IMG/VR virus record: IMGVR_UViG_3300032163_000020
Coordinates: 1-51,492 of that record
Direction: 5' to 3' (one strand)
Length of the DNA stretch: 51,492 nt
From: a virus
Shown: positions 24,702 through 48,554 of the stretch, one piece after another
Layout of the letters: each line of letters begins with the position of its first letter
Numbering within the stretch: the first letter of the stretch is position 1
Program-made: the position numbers and the translations under genes
Notes under the pieces: model-generated
The model's input: the letters and a program-made list of their open reading frames with translations, nothing else
Told to the model about the DNA's origin: nothing
Databases searched by the model: none

Positions 24702-25081
24702 TATGTGTGTTTCCTTAGATGGAGAATGATAACATAAGTGTCGCCATTAGTGTGACCAAAGGTTGTGAATGCAAGATCGCCTGTTATACCAGTACTGGCA
24801 TTGTTTGATAATGCTGGAGAGAACGTCATATCTCCTATTTGATTGCTTGGGATGAGGAGTGCTACTACATCTGCGCTAGCTTCCCATAGCATCTTAACGC
24901 CCATACCGTCGGTCATATATTGGACTCTTGCGATTGATACAGTTGAACAGGCAGGGGTTAATGCACTTACATCAACTTTAACAACATCGGATTCACCTGT
25001 TCCATCAGAGACACTGAGAAACTTTATAACAATCTTGCTCGCGCTTTCTGTGAGTATTTGTGTGGATACTGCGTCTGCCAT
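24701..25081 (-). CDS. Virion protein downstream of beta-helix gene, 126 aa
   Basis: This is a Thr/Ser/Ala/Val-rich beta protein without motifs, with an SVSDGTGESDVVKVDVSAL strand segment. Proteins with this composition often follow the capsid gene in podovirus-like phages as head or head-fibre components. AAGGAG precedes the ATG. Function inferred. Confidence 0.5.
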   Translation of the reverse strand: MADAVSTQILTESASKIVIKFLSVSDGTGESDVVKVDVSALTPACSTVSIARVQYMTDGMGVKMLWEASADVVALLIPSNQIGDMTFSPALSNNASTGITGDLAFTTFGHTNGDTYVIILHLRKHT

Positions 25082-25100
25082 ATTAATCTCCTTAATGAGT

Positions 25101-25135
25101 GGGGATGTACGATCAAGGTGTGAACGTACATCCCC
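25101..25135 (-). terminator. Strong intercistronic stem-loop
   Basis: GGGGATGTACG (25101-25111) pairs perfectly with CGTACATCCCC (25125-25135), 11 base pairs with a 13-base loop. No T-tract follows on the minus strand, so it is more likely an mRNA-stability or attenuation element between the beta-helix and 126-aa genes. Confidence 0.55.
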
Positions 25136-25144
25136 TTAGATTAA

Positions 25145-26134
25145 TTACGCTGCGTTTACTGCTACTCCTTGACCTGCTGTTGCTGCTACAACACTTGAAG
25201 TTACAAATACTCCTGTTGTAGTAGACATCTTTGTTACATTAACTGCGTAACAAAGCGGGTTAAGGACGATTGCACCAACAGTTAAAGTTGCTGCACTTGC
25301 AATAGCTTGTGCAGGTACTGCAGTGGAGTTTGCGGCATTGATGAAACCTGTGTTTTTGAAGAGCAGAAGTCTCTCAACATCAGCGTCTGCAGCTGCATAT
25401 ACAAATCTATTATTGATGTGGCTTGACCTTCTCCATACAAGGCAGTTGGTGAAAGTGTTATCTCTCATAACCTTTCCCGCTCCTGCAATAGCTCTGGTTA
25501 AGAGTATGTTGGCGCGGATAATAGTTCCTGAGACAAGATTAGCAAGAGAACCAATAGTACATCCATTGAACTGTGCGGAGTCACCATTAAGAACCAAGTC
25601 AGCTGCACCCGTCTGATCAAGGTCGGTTTCTTTGTATACCTCGCAGTTGTTCATAACAAGATACTCACCACCGTCAATAAACGAGTATATACCTTCAGCA
25701 ACAGTACTCATATTTCTGAATTTAATGTTAGTAAAACTGTTTCTCACACCTGTATTTATTACAGTAGCTAAATTAAGAGCGCCAGTAAGGGCGGTGAGAT
25801 CTATCTTTGCATTCTGTCCATATAGCCTACTTGTTCCATCAAGGCCAACAAAATGGATTCTGTTTTTAGCTACAGTTAACATTTCAGTTAGTGTGTGTTC
25901 AGTATTACCAACGAGACAAATTACATCGTCTTTATTAGTCGTTGCGGCGTCGTACGCCTTTGAAATAGTTTTCCACGGCCTTCTAATACTGTTTGCTTTT
26001 GTAGAAACACCATCACTTCCATTACCATAATCAACAAACGTTGTTGTGCCGGATGTTACTGGAATCCCACCACCGCCCCACATTGGAATACCATTCCAGG
26101 ATGGGCCACCTGCTCCAAAATCGTATGTACTCAT
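25145..26134 (-). CDS. Right-handed beta-helix head/tail surface protein, 329 aa
   Basis: The N-terminus is Gly-rich (about 7-25). From about 35 the protein shows pectate-lyase-like beta-helix layout: FVDYGNGSDG, PWKTISKAYDAA, then repeated short strands with a stacked Asn/Val/Ile pattern (FTNIKFRNM, YLVMNNCEVYKET, AQFNGCTIG). TGGAGGAT precedes the ATG. It lies just downstream of the capsid gene, a common spot for capsid-surface fibres or spikes. No catalytic residues are evident. Confidence 0.65.
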   Translation of the reverse strand: MSTYDFGAGGPSWNGIPMWGGGGIPVTSGTTTFVDYGNGSDGVSTKANSIRRPWKTISKAYDAATTNKDDVICLVGNTEHTLTEMLTVAKNRIHFVGLDGTSRLYGQNAKIDLTALTGALNLATVINTGVRNSFTNIKFRNMSTVAEGIYSFIDGGEYLVMNNCEVYKETDLDQTGAADLVLNGDSAQFNGCTIGSLANLVSGTIIRANILLTRAIAGAGKVMRDNTFTNCLVWRRSSHINNRFVYAAADADVERLLLFKNTGFINAANSTAVPAQAIASAATLTVGAIVLNPLCYAVNVTKMSTTTGVFVTSSVVAATAGQGVAVNAA

Positions 26135-34410: not shown

Positions 34411-34812
34411 ATGGCAAGAGAGGAAATTAAAATACTTATTTGCAAGAGCAAGGCTGATAAAGATGCTGGCATCGGTAAAGAGTTTATCATTAATGCTGAC
34501 GTAGATGACTTTGGAGATATTATGGGTATTGACACAGTACGGAAAGACCAAAGGTATGGTTTCCGTGTGCGTATGCAAAAAGAGGAATGCAAAGATAGAA
34601 ATTGGGAAGATGGCGTAAAGTATCTTGATGGGTTGGTTGAAAAAGCCAAGGCTGTTAAGTGTGAATTTTCTTACACAGTACGGGATTGGGTGAAAGGTGC
34701 ATCGTCAACAATATCGGCGGATGATAAAGCCCTTCTGGCAATGTTTCGCGGGATGTCAAACGCACAGATTGCCGAATTGGTAGCCACACATAAGGCATTA
34801 AAGGTTGCCTAA
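34411..34812 (+). CDS. Early protein of unknown function, 133 aa
   Basis: The sole gene between the early promoter and the strong stem-loop at 34829. It has an alpha/beta N-terminal half and a C-terminal helix with SADDKALLAMFRGMSNAQIAEL. That tail resembles the ends of the proteins at 40471, 44211 and 48551. It may be a DNA-binding or host-takeover protein. Its monocistronic unit suggests high, early expression. No family was recognised. Confidence 0.6.
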   Translation: MAREEIKILICKSKADKDAGIGKEFIINADVDDFGDIMGIDTVRKDQRYGFRVRMQKEECKDRNWEDGVKYLDGLVEKAKAVKCEFSYTVRDWVKGASSTISADDKALLAMFRGMSNAQIAELVATHKALKVA

Positions 34813-34828
34813 CACACCATCAACAACC

Positions 34829-34866
34829 ACAGGAATTACGGTCGGCGCAAGCCGGCCTTTTCCTGT
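34829..34866 (+). terminator. Stem-loop terminator after the 34411 gene
   Basis: GGTCGGC (34840-34846), GCAA tetraloop and GCCGGCC (34851-34857) form a stem with one G-T pair, followed by TTTTCC. An outer arm ACAGGAA (34829-34835) can pair with TTCCTGT (34860-34866). A Rho-independent terminator or processing hairpin. Confidence 0.75.
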
Positions 34867-34890
34867 TTATGGTTGTATTGGAAGGATGGG

Positions 34891-35034
34891 ACGGTTTAAC
34901 CGTGCGCGGGCGGGAACCGTAGTGTGGTTATACCGCGGAACCGTGGCCGTGGCGCAACGTGAGGGCCGTGGCGGCGTTTCCGGCGTGCCGGTCGTACGTT
35001 TATATACCCTGATGTTAACGTGGCCGTTTCGGCC
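34891..35034. repeat. GC-rich short repeats (iteron-like)
   Basis: AACCGT occurs at 34898, 34915 and 34939. The first is half of a perfect inverted repeat ACGGTT-T-AACCGT (34891-34903). GGCCGTGGCG occurs at 34945 and 34964, and GGCCG-TTT-CGGCC forms a hairpin at 35022-35034. The copies lie in the same region but their spacing is not perfectly regular. Confidence 0.6.
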
Positions 35035-38243: not shown

Positions 38244-38620
38244 ATGACCGTAAAGAGCTTCACAAGTTTATCGTTGAGAAGTTTGGGGGATGTTGGCATG
38301 AAACAATAGGTTTAAGTCATGGTTGGTGCGATCCATCCTATGCTTATACATGTATTAAATGCGGGTTAAACACTTATGATAAGACTTTAAAGAAAAACCT
38401 TGACCTCGACACTCCTAATGGCTTCATGTGGGTGTGGGGGAAGATGAGGGAGGATGACAACAGATGGTTTCATTTTATAGTTTTCGTTGCACATAAAAGT
38501 CCTCACTATGAAGAAGGGATATCTGATTATTATAATGGGCTTGCGGATTTGGTTGATTTAATCGACACCCCCTCCCGATTCATAGACGCGGCGGAGGAAT
38601 TTTTGAAGGAAGAGAAGTGA
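38240..38620 (+). CDS. Unknown Cys-containing protein, 126 aa
   Basis: It has CWHETIGLSHGWC and CIKCGL, a probable metal-binding N-terminal half, and a helical C-terminal half (DLVDLIDTPSRFIDAAEEFL). It lies just before the radical SAM gene and shares a TGATG overlap with it. The overall layout resembles small phage ABA-type domains, which I cannot confirm. Confidence 0.5.
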   Translation: MNDRKELHKFIVEKFGGCWHETIGLSHGWCDPSYAYTCIKCGLNTYDKTLKKNLDLDTPNGFMWVWGKMREDDNRWFHFIVFVAHKSPHYEEGISDYYNGLADLVDLIDTPSRFIDAAEEFLKEEK

Positions 38621-39624
38621 TGAAAATAATTCGTCATCTTAAAGTTCCTACAGGCGATATTCTCGTTGTGGAGGGCGAACGAGGGAAGTTAGAAATGCTT
38701 TCCCTTGGAGATTACGGCAAAGATGTGAACGTAAAATGTGACTGTATGGGCCTTACGCGAGAGATTGGAAAGGTTGACCATTGTGACCTTTTGCCTCTCG
38801 ATGAAAAATGGGTCATAACAATCAGCACTCAATATGGCTGTTCGATGGGGTGCAAGTTTTGTGATGTCCCAAAGGTCGGTTATGGTAAGAATGCAACATT
38901 CAATGATCTTATAAGGCAAGTTCTGACTGGGATTAAACTTCATCCCGAAATACAATCAACGAAACGTCTTAATATTCACTATGCTCGCATGGGAGAGCCA
39001 ACATGGAATCCTAACATACTTGATGCAACAAAATGGTTCAAAACACATATAGATCCTGAGTATAAGATACATCCTGTTGTTTCGACTATGATGCCAAAAC
39101 GTAACGAATGGCTAAAGACGTTTATGCATACATGGATGAGAATAAAAAACAGGCTTCTTCAAGGTGAGGCCGGATTACAAATAAGTGTGAATAGCACAGA
39201 CGAGGGCGAACGGTCTGATATGTTTAATAATAATTGTCATACACTCGAAAGTATAGGCAGAATCATGGAGGGAATTGCCCCCGCCGGACGAAAAATTACA
39301 TTAAATTTCGCGCTTGCTGGATACGAAATTGATCCAGTAAAACTACTTAAATACTTTGACCCTGATGACTATATCATAAAACTCACACCGATGCATAAGA
39401 CAACGCAGGCACTTTCAAACGGTATAGAAACGGTAGGCGACTATACCACATTTACGCCATACCGTGAAGATGAACTACGGCTAAAAGGTGCAGGTTATGA
39501 TGTTCTTGTTTTTATTGCTTCAGAGTATGAAGACCTTGGAAGGATAACTTGTGGCAATGCAATACTTTCAGGTTCAATGCCACTCTGCCCATATTCGGAA
39601 ATTAACAAGGAGGTAAAACCATGA
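38620..39624 (+). CDS. RlmN-like radical SAM enzyme, 334 aa
   Basis: The core shows the RlmN/Cfr layout. A radical SAM CxxxCxxC (GCSMGCKFCDVP, C74, C78, C81) follows STQYG, as in the STQVG/SSQVG segment before the RlmN cluster. RMGEPTWNP (GEP about 125-127), ISVNSTDEGERSDMF, LNFALAGYEID, KLTPMHKTTQA and a late RITCGNAIL (C311, where RlmN has its methyl-carrying Cys) follow. The residue seven positions before C74 is Thr67, where RlmN has Cys118, needed to resolve the covalent RNA intermediate. So it may modify RNA by a different mechanism or act on another substrate. It overlaps the neighbours by 1 and 4 bases. Confidence 0.75.
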   Translation: MKIIRHLKVPTGDILVVEGERGKLEMLSLGDYGKDVNVKCDCMGLTREIGKVDHCDLLPLDEKWVITISTQYGCSMGCKFCDVPKVGYGKNATFNDLIRQVLTGIKLHPEIQSTKRLNIHYARMGEPTWNPNILDATKWFKTHIDPEYKIHPVVSTMMPKRNEWLKTFMHTWMRIKNRLLQGEAGLQISVNSTDEGERSDMFNNNCHTLESIGRIMEGIAPAGRKITLNFALAGYEIDPVKLLKYFDPDDYIIKLTPMHKTTQALSNGIETVGDYTTFTPYREDELRLKGAGYDVLVFIASEYEDLGRITCGNAILSGSMPLCPYSEINKEVKP

Positions 39625-41824: not shown

Positions 41825-42577
41825 ATGCTCATAACCATTTGTGGAGATTACATGACTGGTAAAACAGTTAGCGCCTGCACCTTCCCTAAACCTATGAAAT
41901 ACCTCGATTATGATGGGAAGTTTCTCAGCGCCACCACTGCCAAGAATCCCGATGGCACCTTCGTAAATCCTGACTGGAAGGAAATCGAAGTTGTAGCAAT
42001 GTACGAAAGTGGAGGACAGCAAGACCTCGACTTCAAGTTCAGTCTCGACGCTAAAGCCGCACCCGCTTTCGCCAAGGACTCCTTGAAGATAAACGATAAG
42101 TTCAACGCCCAAACGAAAGAAATATTTGGAAATCCTGGCAAATACAAGACTGTTGTTGTAGACAGCCTCTCACGGATGTTTAGGGTATGGAAGAACTTAC
42201 TCATGGTAACTAACAGTATCCCTAATCCCAGACCTGGCGACTACATCTTCTTCGATGGATTACTCGACAAATGGTTTACAATGATGAAAGAGATGCCAGT
42301 GGACTTTGTAATCCTGGTATCCCACGAAGCCATTGATAAGGATGAGTTAACCGGCGAAATCAAAGAATTCCCTCTTGGCATCAGCGCTAACTTAGGCAAA
42401 GCGATGGGGCGATACACCAATGAGTTATACCGTCAGATGGTAGAACAGGATAAGCATTTATGGTACACCAAAAAGAAGGGGAGGTTCAATGCAGGTTCAT
42501 CACTGAGCCTCCCTTCCCCAATACCAGCAACCTACCACGAACTGAAGAAATATCTTCCGGCAAAGGAGGTAAAGTAG
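41825..42577 (+). CDS. Sak4-like AAA ATPase (recombinase), 250 aa
   Basis: Walker A GDYMTGKT (7-14), Walker B KTVVVDSLSRMF (about 108-119) and the LVSHEAIDKDELTGE region match the AAA_24/Sak4 class, phage RecA-related single-strand annealing proteins. The upstream Cas4-like nuclease and downstream SSB-like gene form the expected recombination module. Confidence 0.75.
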   Translation: MLITICGDYMTGKTVSACTFPKPMKYLDYDGKFLSATTAKNPDGTFVNPDWKEIEVVAMYESGGQQDLDFKFSLDAKAAPAFAKDSLKINDKFNAQTKEIFGNPGKYKTVVVDSLSRMFRVWKNLLMVTNSIPNPRPGDYIFFDGLLDKWFTMMKEMPVDFVILVSHEAIDKDELTGEIKEFPLGISANLGKAMGRYTNELYRQMVEQDKHLWYTKKKGRFNAGSSLSLPSPIPATYHELKKYLPAKEVK

Positions 42578-42753
42578 TGCAAAGAACCGGTGTTGTATTA
42601 CAAGCTATAGGTCAAGTAGGAAGTCATAAAACAACAATCTTAAACATATGCAGAAAAGCACTATCAAAAAGTGGGTATACAATAAGTGAAGGAATACCAA
42701 TCTCTATAGTGATTGAGCAAATATATGTTGAAGAGAAGGAGGTGAAATGGTAG
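42577..42753 (+). CDS. Small protein with P-loop-like sequence, 58 aa
   Basis: GTG start at 42577 has CAAAGGAGG at good spacing and overlaps the previous stop by one base. It has a GQVGSHKTT segment (about 12-20), like a phosphate-binding loop, but it is too short for an ATPase fold. It may bind nucleic acid by a helix-turn-helix-like centre (ILNICRKALSKSGYTISEGI). Confidence 0.5.
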   Translation: MQRTGVVLQAIGQVGSHKTTILNICRKALSKSGYTISEGIPISIVIEQIYVEEKEVKW

Positions 42754-42890
42754 TCAAGGAGATCACTGTTGGTAAGACATTCAATACAGGGAACTATACA
42801 TCAGTCAGATTTGATGCAACTGTTTCCATCGAACCAGACGATAATATTGAAGACGAAGTTAAAGAATTATCTGATGATATAGACTTCTAG
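42747..42890 (+). CDS. Small acidic protein, 47 aa
   Basis: ATG overlaps the previous stop. Ends in an acidic tail DDNIEDEVKELSDDIDF. AAGGAGGTG lies upstream. It is next to the SSB-like gene; such acidic tails can bind other replication proteins, but the function is unknown. Confidence 0.5.
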   Translation: MVVKEITVGKTFNTGNYTSVRFDATVSIEPDDNIEDEVKELSDDIDF

Positions 42891-42910
42891 TTTCAACAGA
42901 AAATAACCAA

Positions 42911-42925
42911 GCCAGCATAGCTGGC
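42911..42925 (+). other. Stem-loop before the SSB-like gene
   Basis: GCCAGC-ATA-GCTGGC is a perfect 6-base-pair hairpin 14 bases before AAGGAGG. It may affect translation of the SSB-like gene, or end the upstream cistron weakly. Confidence 0.5.
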
Positions 42926-42945
42926 GCAAAAAGGAGGAGTACATT

Positions 42946-43353
42946 ATGCCGAGATTCGATGTGGACCTCACGCAGGTCGATGTAATCAGTGGAGAAGTTG
43001 AAGGTGTCGTGCAGAAACTTGAGTACCAGATTAGAACAGGAGAGAAATGGAACAACGCTGGCACATCAACAGTTGAGAAGGAAGTATGGGAGAATCATGC
43101 CGACGGAGCCACCGCTCGCTTGCACTTTACCATCGCAGTTCCTGGTAAAGGCAACCTATTCCATGAGCTCTATTTCAGCGACAAGGCTATGCCTATGACC
43201 AAACGTGTATTGAAACAGATGGGCGTCAACTTCACCCCTACAGGCTACAATCCTGATGATGCTTTGAATGCTCATGTCGGCATGACCGTCGCTATCGAGG
43301 AACAGGCAGGGTATGACCCCAGATCAAACATAGTGAAGTTTTATAAGGCATAG
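42946..43353 (+). CDS. SSB-like single-strand DNA-binding protein, 135 aa
   Basis: Beta-rich OB-fold-like protein with VDVISGEVEGVVQKLEYQIRTG and a C-terminal YDPRSNIVKFYKA, close to the DUF669-type phage SSB-like family. Position next to Sak4-like and nuclease genes supports single-strand DNA binding. AAGGAGGAG precedes the ATG. Confidence 0.65.
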   Translation: MPRFDVDLTQVDVISGEVEGVVQKLEYQIRTGEKWNNAGTSTVEKEVWENHADGATARLHFTIAVPGKGNLFHELYFSDKAMPMTKRVLKQMGVNFTPTGYNPDDALNAHVGMTVAIEEQAGYDPRSNIVKFYKA

Positions 43354-43355
43354 CT

Positions 43356-43499
43356 ATGGAAAGAATCACAGAGGTAGAAATAAAGATAGCATGTTTAAAT
43401 AAAGCCTGTGATATTGCTGTAGTAAGACCAAAAGTAAGCATAATGAAGTTAGCCCAAATAATGTATGATTGGGTGAAAGCAAAGTCTAACAAAGCGTAA
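43356..43499 (+). CDS. Small protein, 47 aa
   Basis: ATG 43356 lies two bases past the SSB-like stop. Helical and basic, ends KAKSNKA. Too short for most callers. No recognised domain. Confidence 0.5.
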   Translation: MERITEVEIKIACLNKACDIAVVRPKVSIMKLAQIMYDWVKAKSNKA

Positions 43500-43508
43500 C
43501 TGTGTGTA

Positions 43509-43593
43509 TAAGCCCACCACCCACTTCGGTAAAGGGTATCATTGCCCTTCTCCAAGTTCTTGGGTGACACCGATATACCCAAGGGTGGGCTTA
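43509..43593 (+). ncRNA. Candidate structured RNA (three-way junction)
   Basis: An 85-base stretch folds by eye into a three-way junction. P1 is TAAGCCCACC (43509-43518) paired perfectly with GGTGGGCTTA (43584-43593). P2 is 43532-43538 with 43543-43549, 7 base pairs including one G-T, around a TCAT loop. P3 is CTTGGGT (43559-43565) with ACCCAAG (43577-43583), 7 base pairs. P1 and P3 abut with no gap, as in coaxial stacking. TCGGT in the first joining strand (43526-43530) can pair with ACCGA in the P3 loop (43569-43573) as a pseudoknot. The site ends just before the ribosome-binding site of the TSCPD gene. It may be a cis-regulatory RNA. A terminator is less likely because A-rich, not T-rich, sequence follows. 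Confidence 0.6.
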
Positions 43594-43617
43594 AATAAAA
43601 GAAAGGAGAAAGAAAAA

Positions 43618-44004
43618 ATGCCCATAGACGACACCGAGTTCCAGAAACAATTAGACATCCTTAGAACTCTCATAGAACCTATCTCTAAAGATGCCTTACC
43701 TAACGACAGTTTTGTAGATAAAACACATTGCGGCAACCTCTACACCCACATCGTATACGAAGACAAGGAGAAAACCAAGATCATCAAAGTCCTCGCCGAC
43801 CTTGGTAAGAGCGGAACATGTGCCAACGCACATCTTAACGAGTTATGCGAACTTTTAACAGGCTTATTCTTATATGTGCCAAGCAAGAATGACCGTTACA
43901 AGGTGTTTATTATGGCCGCTGGGCATAGCTGTGGCCCAGGCACCACTTGTTTCGATGTGATGCTTAGACGCTTGATGACCATCGACACCAGAGTGAAAGG
44001 ATAA
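43618..44004 (+). CDS. Stand-alone TSCPD-domain protein, 128 aa
   Basis: HCGNLYTHIVYED (Cys38), then ADLGKSGTCANAHLNELCELLTGL (Cys68, Cys77) matches the TSCPD domain, which occurs at the C-terminus of B12-dependent ribonucleotide reductases and as stand-alone phage proteins. The ATG 43618 follows AAAGGAGAAAG. No RNR gene is present in this genome, so it may bind metal or modulate the host enzyme. The upstream structured RNA could control it. Confidence 0.7.
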   Translation: MPIDDTEFQKQLDILRTLIEPISKDALPNDSFVDKTHCGNLYTHIVYEDKEKTKIIKVLADLGKSGTCANAHLNELCELLTGLFLYVPSKNDRYKVFIMAAGHSCGPGTTCFDVMLRRLMTIDTRVKG

Positions 44005-44210: not shown

Positions 44211-44504
44211 ATGATACTTACAGACTTATTAGAAACCCCCAACGCTGACCTCACCGATGAGGAAGTGGAACGCAAAATCAACGTCCTACGCAAGCTCCGA
44301 GTCTTTCAAACCGAAGAAATTGAAACTGAAGATGGCATCGATGAAGATGGAGAACCTATCATTCGCACCACCAAGGTTCATAAAGCTAAAGCCATCAAAA
44401 GTAATAAAAGTAAACGTATCAACGACCTTCTCACTGGAATGAGCGAGCAAGACAAGGCAGATTTCATGAAACTCCTCGCCGAAAGGAAGGCCGCCGGTGG
44501 ATAA
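44211..44504 (+). CDS. Small charged protein, 97 aa
   Basis: Acidic/charged, with a C-terminal helix INDLLTGMSEQDKADFMKLL similar to those of the 34411 and 40471 proteins. Precedes and overlaps (8 bases) the ParB-methyltransferase gene. Function unknown. Confidence 0.55.
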   Translation: MILTDLLETPNADLTDEEVERKINVLRKLRVFQTEEIETEDGIDEDGEPIIRTTKVHKAKAIKSNKSKRINDLLTGMSEQDKADFMKLLAERKAAGG

Positions 44505-45792
44505 GAAACTCATACATTCAATAGAAATCAGTACTATTATCATCGGCAACCGTCAGCGTAAGAAGCTCGGTAACATCGAGGAATTTGCTGACTCCATCAA
44601 GCACCATGGGCAGATATATCCTATCATTCTCACCGAGGATAACAAACTCGTCGCTGGCGAGCGTCGTCTTCGCGCCTGCCTCCATCTCAAACTTACTCAT
44701 ATTGATGCCATATACCGCAAGTACGCTGAACTTGACTCCTTCATCATCGAAGCAATCGAAAACATCGACAGGAAAGCCTTAGAGTGGGAAGAGGAAGTCA
44801 AGATCACCGAGGAACTTCACAAAATGCTTATCCTTAAATATGGCGATAGATGGAGTGGGCGCAAGACTGCGGAGAAAATAAAAATGTCCCTTGGTGGTGT
44901 CAGCACCAATCTCCAACTCGCTAAGGCACTTGACGAAGCCCCTGACATATTCGAGAAATGCCGTACAAAAGAACAAGCCCTCAAAGCATTAAAAAAGTAC
45001 AAACTTGATGAAGCAATGGCGGAGTTGGCGTTGCGTAACAGCAAGAAAAAATATGGCCTTAAAGCCAAGCAATATCTTCTCAACGGTAACAGTCTCGACC
45101 TAATTAAGCAAATTCCTGACGCATCTATAAATGTCCTTCTCACCGATCCACCTTATGGCATAAACTTAAGCGATACTATGTTCCACAGTACCCGTGATAT
45201 GCCCAGTGAAAATAAAGATCACTATGAAGATTCAACTGAATATTTCAAAGACCTTATTGAAGCCCTTATCCCTGACCTTAATCGCATCCTTAAACCTGAT
45301 TCTGCTGTATGTATATTCTGCGCTTACGAGCATAGTAAATGGCTCGCAGACCAGTTCCGCACGATTGGTTATGCCATGGATGTCCTGCCAGGAATCTGGG
45401 TTAAACACAATGCAGGGCGGTGTAATGTACCTGAAAAATATTTCAACCGTGGCTATGAGTATTTCGTCTATGGCACTCGTGGGATGTTTACTCTCGCTAA
45501 ACTTGGCACGAACAATGTCATCCAGTGTACTAACATCAACACAATGGATCGTATCCATCCATCAGAGAAACCGCTTGAGTTAATGGAAGAACTTCTATCA
45601 AGATTTTGCCTTCCTGGTCATACCACCCTTGACCCATTCGCAGGCTCTTGCTCATCTGTGGTGGCATCGATCAAGCGAGGTTGCATCCCCATCAGTTTTG
45701 AACTCGATCCTAAGTTTTACAACAACGGCTTACAGCGCATCGCTAAAGCATTAGAAATGAAAGATGAAGGGAAGATGCAGGTGATACAATGA
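44497..45792 (+). CDS. ParB-like/DNA methyltransferase fusion, 431 aa
   Basis: GTG start with AAGGAAGG upstream. Residues 1-180 have the ParB/Srx-like fold: GNRQRKKLGNIEEFADSIKHHG and VAGERRLRACLHL (GERR 54-57), then a helical region. Residues about 195-431 are a DNA methyltransferase with TDPPYG (DPPY about 217-220), and DPFAGSCSS (about 379) where most members have DPFAGSGS. The order DPPY before FAG motif is the beta class. It likely modifies N6-adenine or N4-cytosine in phage DNA to evade restriction. The ParB part may give it specificity. Confidence 0.85.
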   Translation: MDKKLIHSIEISTIIIGNRQRKKLGNIEEFADSIKHHGQIYPIILTEDNKLVAGERRLRACLHLKLTHIDAIYRKYAELDSFIIEAIENIDRKALEWEEEVKITEELHKMLILKYGDRWSGRKTAEKIKMSLGGVSTNLQLAKALDEAPDIFEKCRTKEQALKALKKYKLDEAMAELALRNSKKKYGLKAKQYLLNGNSLDLIKQIPDASINVLLTDPPYGINLSDTMFHSTRDMPSENKDHYEDSTEYFKDLIEALIPDLNRILKPDSAVCIFCAYEHSKWLADQFRTIGYAMDVLPGIWVKHNAGRCNVPEKYFNRGYEYFVYGTRGMFTLAKLGTNNVIQCTNINTMDRIHPSEKPLELMEELLSRFCLPGHTTLDPFAGSCSSVVASIKRGCIPISFELDPKFYNNGLQRIAKALEMKDEGKMQVIQ

Positions 45793-45990: not shown

Positions 45991-46131
45991 ATGAATCAAT
46001 GCCCAATATTTAATTTTAATGAAGTATTATTTAGCACCTGCAAAATGTGCTGCTTCCATGGCTCTATAGAAGGCAACCATTACATATGTTTATTCAAATA
46101 TAATGATAGTATAGAAGAACAAATATGGTAG
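45991..46131 (+). CDS. Cys-rich microprotein, 46 aa
   Basis: ATG 45991 with AAAGGAG upstream. It has six Cys, including CKMCC, suggesting a metal site. It overlaps the polymerase gene by 7 bases. Function unknown. Confidence 0.5.
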   Translation: MNQCPIFNFNEVLFSTCKMCCFHGSIEGNHYICLFKYNDSIEEQIW

Positions 46132-48554
46132 ATACTAATTCACTTGAATCCATCACCGTTCCTGCTGTAGGCCCACTTGATGCAAAAATTGCCTTCATCG
46201 GCGAAGCCCCTGGCCATGATGAGGAACTTGCCCACGAACCTTTCGTAGGAATGTCCGGCAACATCCTTAACATAAAACTCCATGCCACTGGCATCATCCG
46301 TCATCAGTGTTACATTGATAACCTTATACAGGTGCGCCCCGCTACATTCTATAAGCACCAAGAGACACTTGGTTACAGTGGCATCCGCCGTCCTAAGAAC
46401 GAGAATGACTTCAGCATCTTCTGGAGCGGCTCACGTCCTACACAAGCTCTCATCGACGCTAAAGCATCCCTTCTTGCTCGCCTTGAGAATGTCAAAGCTA
46501 ATGTTTTCGTCCCTCTTGGTAATAGCGCACTATGGGCATTAACAGGCCAGTCGAAGATAAGCATCTGGCGTGGCTCGATATTACCTTGCACCCTCCCTTC
46601 TGGTCGCATCATTAAGATAATCGCCTCCTACCATCCCGCTGCTGTCATACGCGATTGGAAACTTGGGGCTGTGCTTCAGTGCGATTTAGAGAAGGTTAAA
46701 GTGCAGAGTGCATTCCCTGAGGTGAAGTATCCACAGCGCGAACTTCGTATCGCTCCTACTTACAGCGATGTAGTAGATTACATATACACAAACAACGCTT
46801 CGGAGGTAAGTTTCGACATTGAAACTTCCCCTTCCGATATAACTTGCATCGCATTATCCTCATCACCAAACATTGCTATATCCATTCCCACCACCAAGCA
46901 TTACTGGGGAAGCATCAGCCGACTCCATGATGTGCTGAAAGCTATAGAATTTTTATTAACCGACAAGGCTCCAAAAATTGGTCAAAATATCTCCTACGAC
47001 CTCCAGTACCTCATCCGCATCTGGGGCATCCTTCCTACTAAACCGTGGCATGATACTATGATAGCCCAACACACATGCTATCCTGACTTGTCGGGTGAAC
47101 AAAAGGAAGAAGGCTCTTCCAAGGCTAAACGTGTCATGAAAACAAAGTCCCTCGCGTTTATCTCCTCCATCTACACCGACGAACCCTATTATAAAGATGA
47201 ACTAAAGAAATGGATCGATGGCAAGTCCAACGATGAGGCATTATGGCGCTACAACGCTAATGACGCAGCCGTCACCCTTGAGTGCCACTACGCTCTGCAG
47301 AACGAGATGAAAGAGTTAGGTGTCACCCATACTTACGACTTTATGATGGAACTCCTCGAACCATTGCTCTACATGATGTTGCGCGGAGTTCGCATTGACG
47401 AATCCGCTCGCGCCCAACACGTCATAGACATGACAGCGAAGCTTAAGCATAACAAAGAGATATTTACTGCTAAATATGGTGAGATAAACTTACGCTCACC
47501 TAAACAAGTACTCGAACTCATACACAAACTTGGCCTTAAGCCGCCTATGAAAGATGGCAAGCCTTCCACCAACAAACAGGCTCTCGACAAACTCGCAGTC
47601 AAATCCCCAGAGTTCAAGAACATCATTGGCTTCCGCGAGGCATCGGTCTTACTGAGCAATCACCTCCAAGCGCCTGGCGATGGAGAGGATGGCAGATGGA
47701 GATGCTCCTTCAACAGTACTGGAGCCGCCACTGGTAGACTCTCATCAAGTGCTGGTATCTTCGGTAGCGCCACCAACCTTCAGAACGTCAAGGCCAGCCT
47801 TCGTAACATCGTTATCCCTGACGCTGGAATGATATTTAGCGAAGCTGACCTTAAAGGCGCGGAAGCTATGATCGTCGCTTACTTATGCGAAGACGAACTC
47901 CTCATCTCCAAGTTCATCAACGGAGAGAACATCCACACCCACACAGCGATGATGATATGGCCCACTCTCACTCCAGACGCTATAGCCTTAAATAAAAAGA
48001 TATGCCACCGCGAAGGCCGTGACACCGAATCCTTCTACCATCGCGCCAAGACTACCCGCCATGCTGGTAACTACAACGTCGGCGCATACACTCTCAGCAT
48101 GAACCTTAAAATCCCTAAGGCCGACGCCGAGAAACTCATCCAGCGCTTCAAAGATAGAAGCCCGAACCTTGCAATGTGGCATAGTGAAGTAGACCAACAG
48201 CTCAAGAAGGATAGAACTCTCATCACCCCGTTAGGCAGAAAGAGAAAGTTCTTTGATAGGTATGGACCTGAACTACTCAAACAAGGACTCGCATATATCC
48301 CCCAAGAGACCGCCGCTCACATCTTAAACCTTGGGCTTATCAATGTCTATAATCAACTGTGTGCGCCATACAAAAGTATCGAGGTTCTACTGAATGTCCA
48401 CGACAGCATCCTTGTGCAGCATCCACCAGAGTTGACATTCTTCGTCCACGACCAACTGCATAAGTTAATGTCAATCCCTGTCACAATCAAGGGGAGAACC
48501 TGCACCATACCAATCGACATTAAGTGTGGCACATCGTGGAGGGATTTAAAGTGA
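46125..48554 (+). CDS. Uracil-DNA-glycosylase/family A DNA polymerase fusion, 809 aa
   Basis: Residues 1-200 are a UDG-like domain: GEAPGHDEE (26-34), PFVG (39-42) and SYHPAAV (His about 170). Residues about 225-400 are a 3'-5' exonuclease with FDIET (DIE about 231), QNISYD and YNAND, all catalytic acids kept. The polymerase domain has motif A DLKGAE (Asp about 575), an O-helix K-TTR-H-AGN-Y (K about 641, with His where E. coli has Phe762), and motif C VHDS instead of HDE. No 5'-3' exonuclease is present. The ATG overlaps a small ORF. Fusions of UDG-like and family A polymerase occur in phage SPO1-type enzymes. Confidence 0.85.
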   Translation: MVDTNSLESITVPAVGPLDAKIAFIGEAPGHDEELAHEPFVGMSGNILNIKLHATGIIRHQCYIDNLIQVRPATFYKHQETLGYSGIRRPKNENDFSIFWSGSRPTQALIDAKASLLARLENVKANVFVPLGNSALWALTGQSKISIWRGSILPCTLPSGRIIKIIASYHPAAVIRDWKLGAVLQCDLEKVKVQSAFPEVKYPQRELRIAPTYSDVVDYIYTNNASEVSFDIETSPSDITCIALSSSPNIAISIPTTKHYWGSISRLHDVLKAIEFLLTDKAPKIGQNISYDLQYLIRIWGILPTKPWHDTMIAQHTCYPDLSGEQKEEGSSKAKRVMKTKSLAFISSIYTDEPYYKDELKKWIDGKSNDEALWRYNANDAAVTLECHYALQNEMKELGVTHTYDFMMELLEPLLYMMLRGVRIDESARAQHVIDMTAKLKHNKEIFTAKYGEINLRSPKQVLELIHKLGLKPPMKDGKPSTNKQALDKLAVKSPEFKNIIGFREASVLLSNHLQAPGDGEDGRWRCSFNSTGAATGRLSSSAGIFGSATNLQNVKASLRNIVIPDAGMIFSEADLKGAEAMIVAYLCEDELLISKFINGENIHTHTAMMIWPTLTPDAIALNKKICHREGRDTESFYHRAKTTRHAGNYNVGAYTLSMNLKIPKADAEKLIQRFKDRSPNLAMWHSEVDQQLKKDRTLITPLGRKRKFFDRYGPELLKQGLAYIPQETAAHILNLGLINVYNQLCAPYKSIEVLLNVHDSILVQHPPELTFFVHDQLHKLMSIPVTIKGRTCTIPIDIKCGTSWRDLK

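What the first reader, a model, noticed from the sequence alone, without database searches (positions are those of the whole stretch)
43509..43593. Compact three-way-junction RNA with possible pseudoknot before a TSCPD gene
Three stems (10, 7 and 7 base pairs) plus a 5-bp loop-to-junction pairing fit in 85 bases directly ahead of the ribosome-binding site. The arms are too long and too well placed for chance, and the sequence is not T-rich after the stem, so it is not a usual terminator. It precedes a TSCPD gene, a domain linked to ribonucleotide reductase. It may sense a nucleotide or metabolite, or the mRNA state. I could not match it to a known class (purine, glutamine, THF and similar do not fit by eye).
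Basis: partly seen in the sequence, partly recalled or inferred. Interest (0 to 1): 0.85.

Follow-up and report, generated by a model that had tools for sequence, protein, structure and literature searches.

The report
Folded RNA leader in a phage
Just ahead of a small gene in the replication region of a bacterial virus lies an 85-letter stretch that folds into a three-armed RNA; its shape is preserved in the only related virus found, so it is probably a real regulatory RNA of an unlisted family, but what it does is not shown.

Summary
Window 43509-43593 (+) folds into a three-way junction (P1 10 bp, P2 7 bp, P3 7 bp; z = -4), second of 2,856 windows tested along the phage. One relative exists, a 51,168-bp phage contig collinear with the window. 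It carries the RNA at the same place with 8 changes in 85 nt, while neighbouring genes differ at about 28% of four-fold sites. Two P3 pairs changed on both sides and still pair (GC to CG, GC to UA). The nine loop bases GACACCGAU stay fixed while their neighbours change. This is a maintained RNA, not chance. The 5-bp pseudoknot (UCGGU/ACCGA) is possible but never varies, and it competes with the predicted fold, where its GG extends P2. No Rfam family matches. Scans of IMG/VR, GTDB genomes and reference phages found no third copy. The downstream gene is only weakly TSCPD-like, and nothing supports nucleotide or cobalamin sensing. Most likely it is a cis-acting leader of that gene, with a possible GG switch in the junction. 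The chief rival is an intercistronic processing or stability element, since strong hairpins follow the positional SSB-like gene in some distant relatives. An orphan two-member RNA motif of moderate interest.

The parts
43509..43518 (+). P1 5' arm (UAAGCCCACC)
   Evidence: Pairs with 43584-43593 at probability 0.93-1.0; all 10 pairs unchanged in the relative
43523..43529 (+). Junction strand J1/2 ACUUCGG: pairs with AAGU and CC of J2/3 (P2 extension, in the MFE)
43526..43530 (+). 5' side of possible pseudoknot (UCGGU)
   Evidence: Complementary to 43569-43573; unchanged in the relative; excludes the GG/CC part of the P2 extension
43532..43549 (+). P2 hairpin (AAGGGUA-UCAU-UGCCCUU)
43550..43553 (+). 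CUCC in J2/3, complementary to the Shine-Dalgarno GGAG in both phages (possible anti-SD)
   Evidence: inference, such a 4-mer is common by chance
43559..43583 (+). P3 hairpin; pairs 43563-43579 and 43564-43578 change on both sides in the relative and still pair; loop-closing pair 43565-43577 is broken there
43566..43574 (+). P3 loop GACACCGAU, invariant while flanking bases change; holds ACCGA (43569-43573), 3' side of the possible pseudoknot
43584..43593 (+). P1 3' arm (GGUGGGCUUA)
43605..43608 (+). Shine-Dalgarno GGAG, unpaired in the predicted ensemble
43618..44004 (+). Downstream gene, 128 aa, weakly TSCPD-like; 98% identical to its orthologue
   Evidence: NCBIfam NF006417 E 2.6e-4 over residues 35-80; no Pfam hit; alignment
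43356..43499 (+). 47-aa ORF present only in this phage, between the SSB-like gene and the RNA
   Evidence: absent from the relative, where the RNA starts about 10 nt after the SSB-like stop
42946..43353 (+). Upstream gene in the usual SSB/DUF669 position after Sak4; 48% identical to its orthologue; no family match of its own

Best explanation
It is a cis-acting structured leader in the polycistronic replication mRNA of this phage that sets expression of the TSCPD-like gene just downstream. Shown: the three-way junction is in the sequence and is kept by selection in two phages. Inferred: it acts on the mRNA at the start of the downstream gene. Proposed mechanism (conjecture): the junction GG (43528-43529) pairs either with CC of J2/3, lengthening P2 and leaving the Shine-Dalgarno free, or with CC of the P3 loop (pseudoknot), which frees CUCC of J2/3 to pair with the Shine-Dalgarno GGAG and lower translation. 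A bound protein (perhaps the gene's own product), a ligand or the translation state would set the balance. Rough confidence: real maintained RNA about 0.9, leader acting on the downstream gene about 0.5, this particular switch about 0.15.
For: Fold energy z -3.95 and rank 2 of 2,856 windows. In the relative, 8 changes in 85 nt against about 28% difference at four-fold sites of TSCPD and neighbours; binomial P about 3e-5, or 0.007 if 20% is taken. Two double compensatory changes and one broken closing pair; with 8 changes placed at random, two or more compensations with at most one break has P 0.0005. Invariant 9-nt loop between changing bases. Identity resumes 20 nt before the RNA and runs through the downstream gene, while the SSB-like gene upstream is replaced or diverged (blocks 41825-42966 and 43489-44004; proteins): the RNA stays with the downstream gene. 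The P2-extension and pseudoknot states are close in energy in both phages, and J2/3 can pair with both Shine-Dalgarno sequences (GGAGAA and GGAGGA against UUCUCC).
Against: Only two sequences. With changed positions held fixed and random letters, two compensations occur in 20% of trials, and the column-shuffle control has no power with two rows (141/500). Pseudoknot and switch pairs never vary. The Shine-Dalgarno is predicted open, so the default state would be on, with no demonstrated off state. CUCC opposite a Shine-Dalgarno is common by chance. An SD-J2/3 helix would cross P1.
Confidence: 0.5

Rival explanations
1. An intercistronic processing or stability element: the folded RNA protects the 3' end of the SSB-like message or is a ribonuclease processing site separating SSB-like from later genes, without sensing anything.
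For: In the relative the RNA begins about 10 nt after the SSB-like stop. In distant phages with a similar gene order the gap after the gene in the SSB position holds a strong hairpin: Desulfofustis phage LS06-2018-MD01 z -10.1, first of 9 gaps; Microcystis phage Mel-JY34 second of 7.
Against: Rank only 4 of 10 and 9 of 11 in two others. Those are simple hairpins, not three-way junctions. Sequence-level conservation of loop and junction is more than a barrier needs. In the window a 47-aa ORF separates SSB-like from the RNA, and the RNA stays joined to the downstream gene.
Confidence: 0.3
2. A ligand-binding riboswitch of a new class restricted to this phage group.
For: Compact three-way junction, invariant junction and loop bases, leader position, two states close in estimated energy.
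Against: No Rfam match, no third member in any collection searched, no ligand clue from gene content, weak TSCPD assignment.
Confidence: 0.12
3. A DNA-level element (replication origin hairpin, cruciform or recombination site) rather than an RNA.
For: It lies in the replication module, and compensatory changes would also preserve a DNA hairpin.
Against: P2 contains a U-G pair; the plus strand folds better relative to shuffles than the minus; it sits exactly before a ribosome-binding site. It lacks the invariant G of integron attC sites at the expected place (CTTAAAT instead of GTTRRRY, read by eye).
Confidence: 0.06
4. Chance fold without function.
For: Only one, rather close relative is available.
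Against: Energy, rank, constraint and compensations.
Confidence: 0.04

Closest known systems
Translational riboswitches and leaders with a loop-to-junction pseudoknot (e.g. THF-I, preQ1-II classes; from general knowledge)
   Same: Compact junction with a hairpin loop that can pair with a junction strand, placed in a 5' leader close to the Shine-Dalgarno
   Different: No sequence or covariance match to any Rfam family; Shine-Dalgarno not in a predicted helix; no ligand known; pseudoknot unproven
Intercistronic hairpins and RNase processing sites of phage and bacterial operons (general knowledge)
   Same: Stable structure between two genes of one operon; strong hairpins occur after the positional SSB-like gene in some distant phages
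   Different: Three-way junction with invariant loop and junction bases; stays joined to the downstream gene
nrdJ RNA, cobalamin, 2'-dG and other RNAs linked to ribonucleotide reductase genes (general knowledge)
   Same: Leader position before a gene with weak similarity to the TSCPD end of B12-dependent reductase
   Different: No cmscan match even at E up to 5 on the region except a chance mir-8 hit on the other strand

Membership tests
Any Rfam 15 family (incl. wcaG, manA, THF, purine, glutamine, cobalamin) | Covariance-model score at or above gathering threshold, or a weak match on the plus strand | tested here: not met
Conserved structured RNA | Stems kept in a homologous leader with compensatory changes | tested here: met
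   31 of 32 listed pairs kept; 2 double changes; limited to two sequences
Three-way junction with loop-junction pseudoknot | Pseudoknot supported by covariation | tested here: inconclusive
   5 pairs invariant, competing with the P2 extension
Riboswitch | Binds a ligand and changes expression | not testable with these tools
   needs in-line probing and reporters
Riboswitch | Recurs as a class before functionally related genes in diverse genomes | tested here: not met
   only the near relative found: IMG/VR scans, GTDB scans, phages, about 1,190 sampled genomes
Intrinsic terminator | G+C-rich stem followed by a T run | tested here: not met
   none at the site on either strand; P1 is followed by AAAUAAAA
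TSCPD domain (PF12637), downstream protein | Pfam match | tested here: not met
   only NCBIfam NF006417 over residues 35-80 at E 2.6e-4; AlphaFold model unusable, pLDDT 45

The most novel reading that the evidence does not exclude
A new phage-restricted riboswitch or protein-controlled RNA switch in which the junction GG is exchanged between a P2 extension and a P3-loop pseudoknot, freeing an anti-Shine-Dalgarno CUCC, to control a gene related to the TSCPD end of ribonucleotide reductase.
Probability: 0.12. Interest if true: 0.7.

Novelty: new variant of a known kind. Interest (0 to 1): 0.4.

Why it matters
If it acts as a leader switch, it would be a compact phage RNA regulator outside all Rfam families, in front of a gene with a possible link to nucleotide metabolism. 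With only two members known it is at present a well-defined orphan motif whose structure, and not its function, is supported.

Tried and rejected
Rfam at gathering and relaxed thresholds: nothing. Exact and gapped patterns over IMG/VR and over GTDB genomes: apart from the relative, the hits showed no matching fold by eye and scored at most 17 bits with model R1 against 148-158 for the true pair. Protein search for the TSCPD-like gene in IMG/VR, phages, plasmids, genomes: only the relative. Terminase and polymerase searches for more relatives: no further close phage. Distant phages with similar gene order: no copy of RNA or gene. Model R1 over about 1,190 genomes of three phyla: none; the tool warns that this has no positive control. 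AlphaFold of the downstream protein failed. Coding in the RNA: the frame open in the relative is stopped in the window by TGA (read). A mobile RNA+gene cassette was considered when the block looked more alike than its surroundings, and rejected because the two phages are collinear over most of their length. Literature search on TSCPD and phage found nothing useful.

Full report
What is there. The window is a 51,492-base phage record. At 43509-43593 on the plus strand the sequence folds into a three-way junction: P1 of 10 pairs, P2 of 7, P3 of 7 (8 with a terminal G-U), MFE -42.5 kcal/mol for 43480-43620, z -3.95, none of 200 shuffles as good. The minus strand is less exceptional (z -2.2). Scanning the record in 110-nt windows on both strands, this place ranks second of 2,856 by energy below shuffles.

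Context. The RNA is followed by GGAG (43605) and an ATG at 43618 opening a 128-aa gene. That gene matches only the C-terminal, TSCPD-bearing end of NCBIfam NF006417 (B12-dependent ribonucleotide reductase) at E 2.6e-4 over residues 35-80, not Pfam TSCPD. Upstream are a PD-(D/E)XK exonuclease, a Sak4-like ATPase and a gene in the usual SSB position; downstream a ParB-N/DNA-methylase fusion and a UDG-exonuclease-polymerase A fusion. It is an early replication operon by gene content (inference). No promoter or terminator consensus lies at the RNA.

The relative. One IMG/VR contig of 51,168 bases (L002, G001) is collinear with the window over most of its length at about 70-92% DNA identity. Its leader aligns without gaps through the RNA. 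Eight of 85 positions differ: one junction base, and seven around the tip of P3. Two P3 pairs changed on both sides and still pair (GC to CG, GC to UA); the loop-closing U-A becomes G-A; no other listed pair changes. The nine loop bases GACACCGAU are identical while the bases beside them change. RNAfold and RNAalifold give the same junction in both.

Is it constraint? Four-fold degenerate sites are 69-72% identical in the exonuclease, Sak4, TSCPD-like and ParB genes and 82% in the polymerase, against 90.6% for the RNA; the binomial P is 3e-5 at 28% divergence and 0.007 at 20%. Placing 8 changes at random gives two or more compensations with at most one break in 0.05% of trials, but keeping the changed positions and randomising letters gives two compensations in 20%, and shuffling columns of two sequences has no power. 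Structure is therefore well supported by energy, constraint and position together, and only modestly by covariation alone.

The pseudoknot. It is possible and conserved but never varies. In the MFE its GG (43528-43529) pairs with CC (43552-43553), extending P2 together with ACUU/AAGU. Freeing the pseudoknot strands costs 6.0 and 5.9 kcal/mol in the two phages, and the isolated duplex is worth -5.2, so on this rough reckoning (which cannot model the pseudoknot itself) the two states are close. J2/3 holds UUCUCC, which can pair with the Shine-Dalgarno region in both phages (GGAGAA, and GGAGGA with one G-U). A switch that exchanges GG between the two partners and frees CUCC to mask the Shine-Dalgarno is an attractive conjecture, no more: a CUCC within 85 nt is not rare.

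Leader of the downstream gene or trailer of the upstream one? In the relative the RNA starts about 10 nt after the SSB-like stop, and in two of four distant phages with a similar gene order the gap after the gene in that position is among the most structured, which favours an intercistronic stability or processing element. Against that, in the window a 47-aa ORF separates the SSB-like gene from the RNA; high identity between the two phages stops at 42966 and resumes at 43489, so the diverged segment is the SSB-like gene (48% identical) while RNA and downstream gene (98%) travel together. I favour the leader.

Distribution. No third copy was found by four DNA patterns, protein searches and gene-neighbour searches in IMG/VR, two scans of GTDB genomes, reference phages and plasmids, or a covariance model over fetched loci and about 1,190 genomes. 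The model rests on two near-identical sequences, so distant members could be missed; metagenome contigs could not be searched.

Verdict. A genuine, maintained structured RNA of unknown function, outside Rfam, known from two phages.

Noticed in passing
window 34770-34930: A second very structured stretch on the plus strand (-67.7 kcal/mol, z -4.7), mostly in a ~450-nt space between ORFs 34411-34812 and 35263, near the start of the rightward genes. No Rfam match.
   Followed up: partly
window 25057-25290: Strongest fold by energy on the plus strand, partly antisense to the structural gene 25145-26134; probably an effect of coding sequence.
   Followed up: no
window 42966-43488: The SSB-like gene is only 48% identical between two otherwise near phages, and a 47-aa ORF follows it only here: a likely replacement by recombination.
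   Followed up: partly
window 38617-39624: Radical SAM protein resembling the RlmN/Cfr rRNA methyltransferases over about 85 residues, far below their cut-offs.
   Followed up: no
window 46125-48554: DNA polymerase A with a uracil-DNA-glycosylase-like N-terminus and 3'-5' exonuclease in one protein.
   Followed up: no
window 44497-45792: ParB N-terminal domain fused to a DNA methylase; similar neighbours occur in distant phages.
   Followed up: no
L111 8122-8194 (Desulfofustis phage LS06-2018-MD01): An almost perfect 18-bp hairpin right after the gene in the SSB position (z -10).
   Followed up: partly
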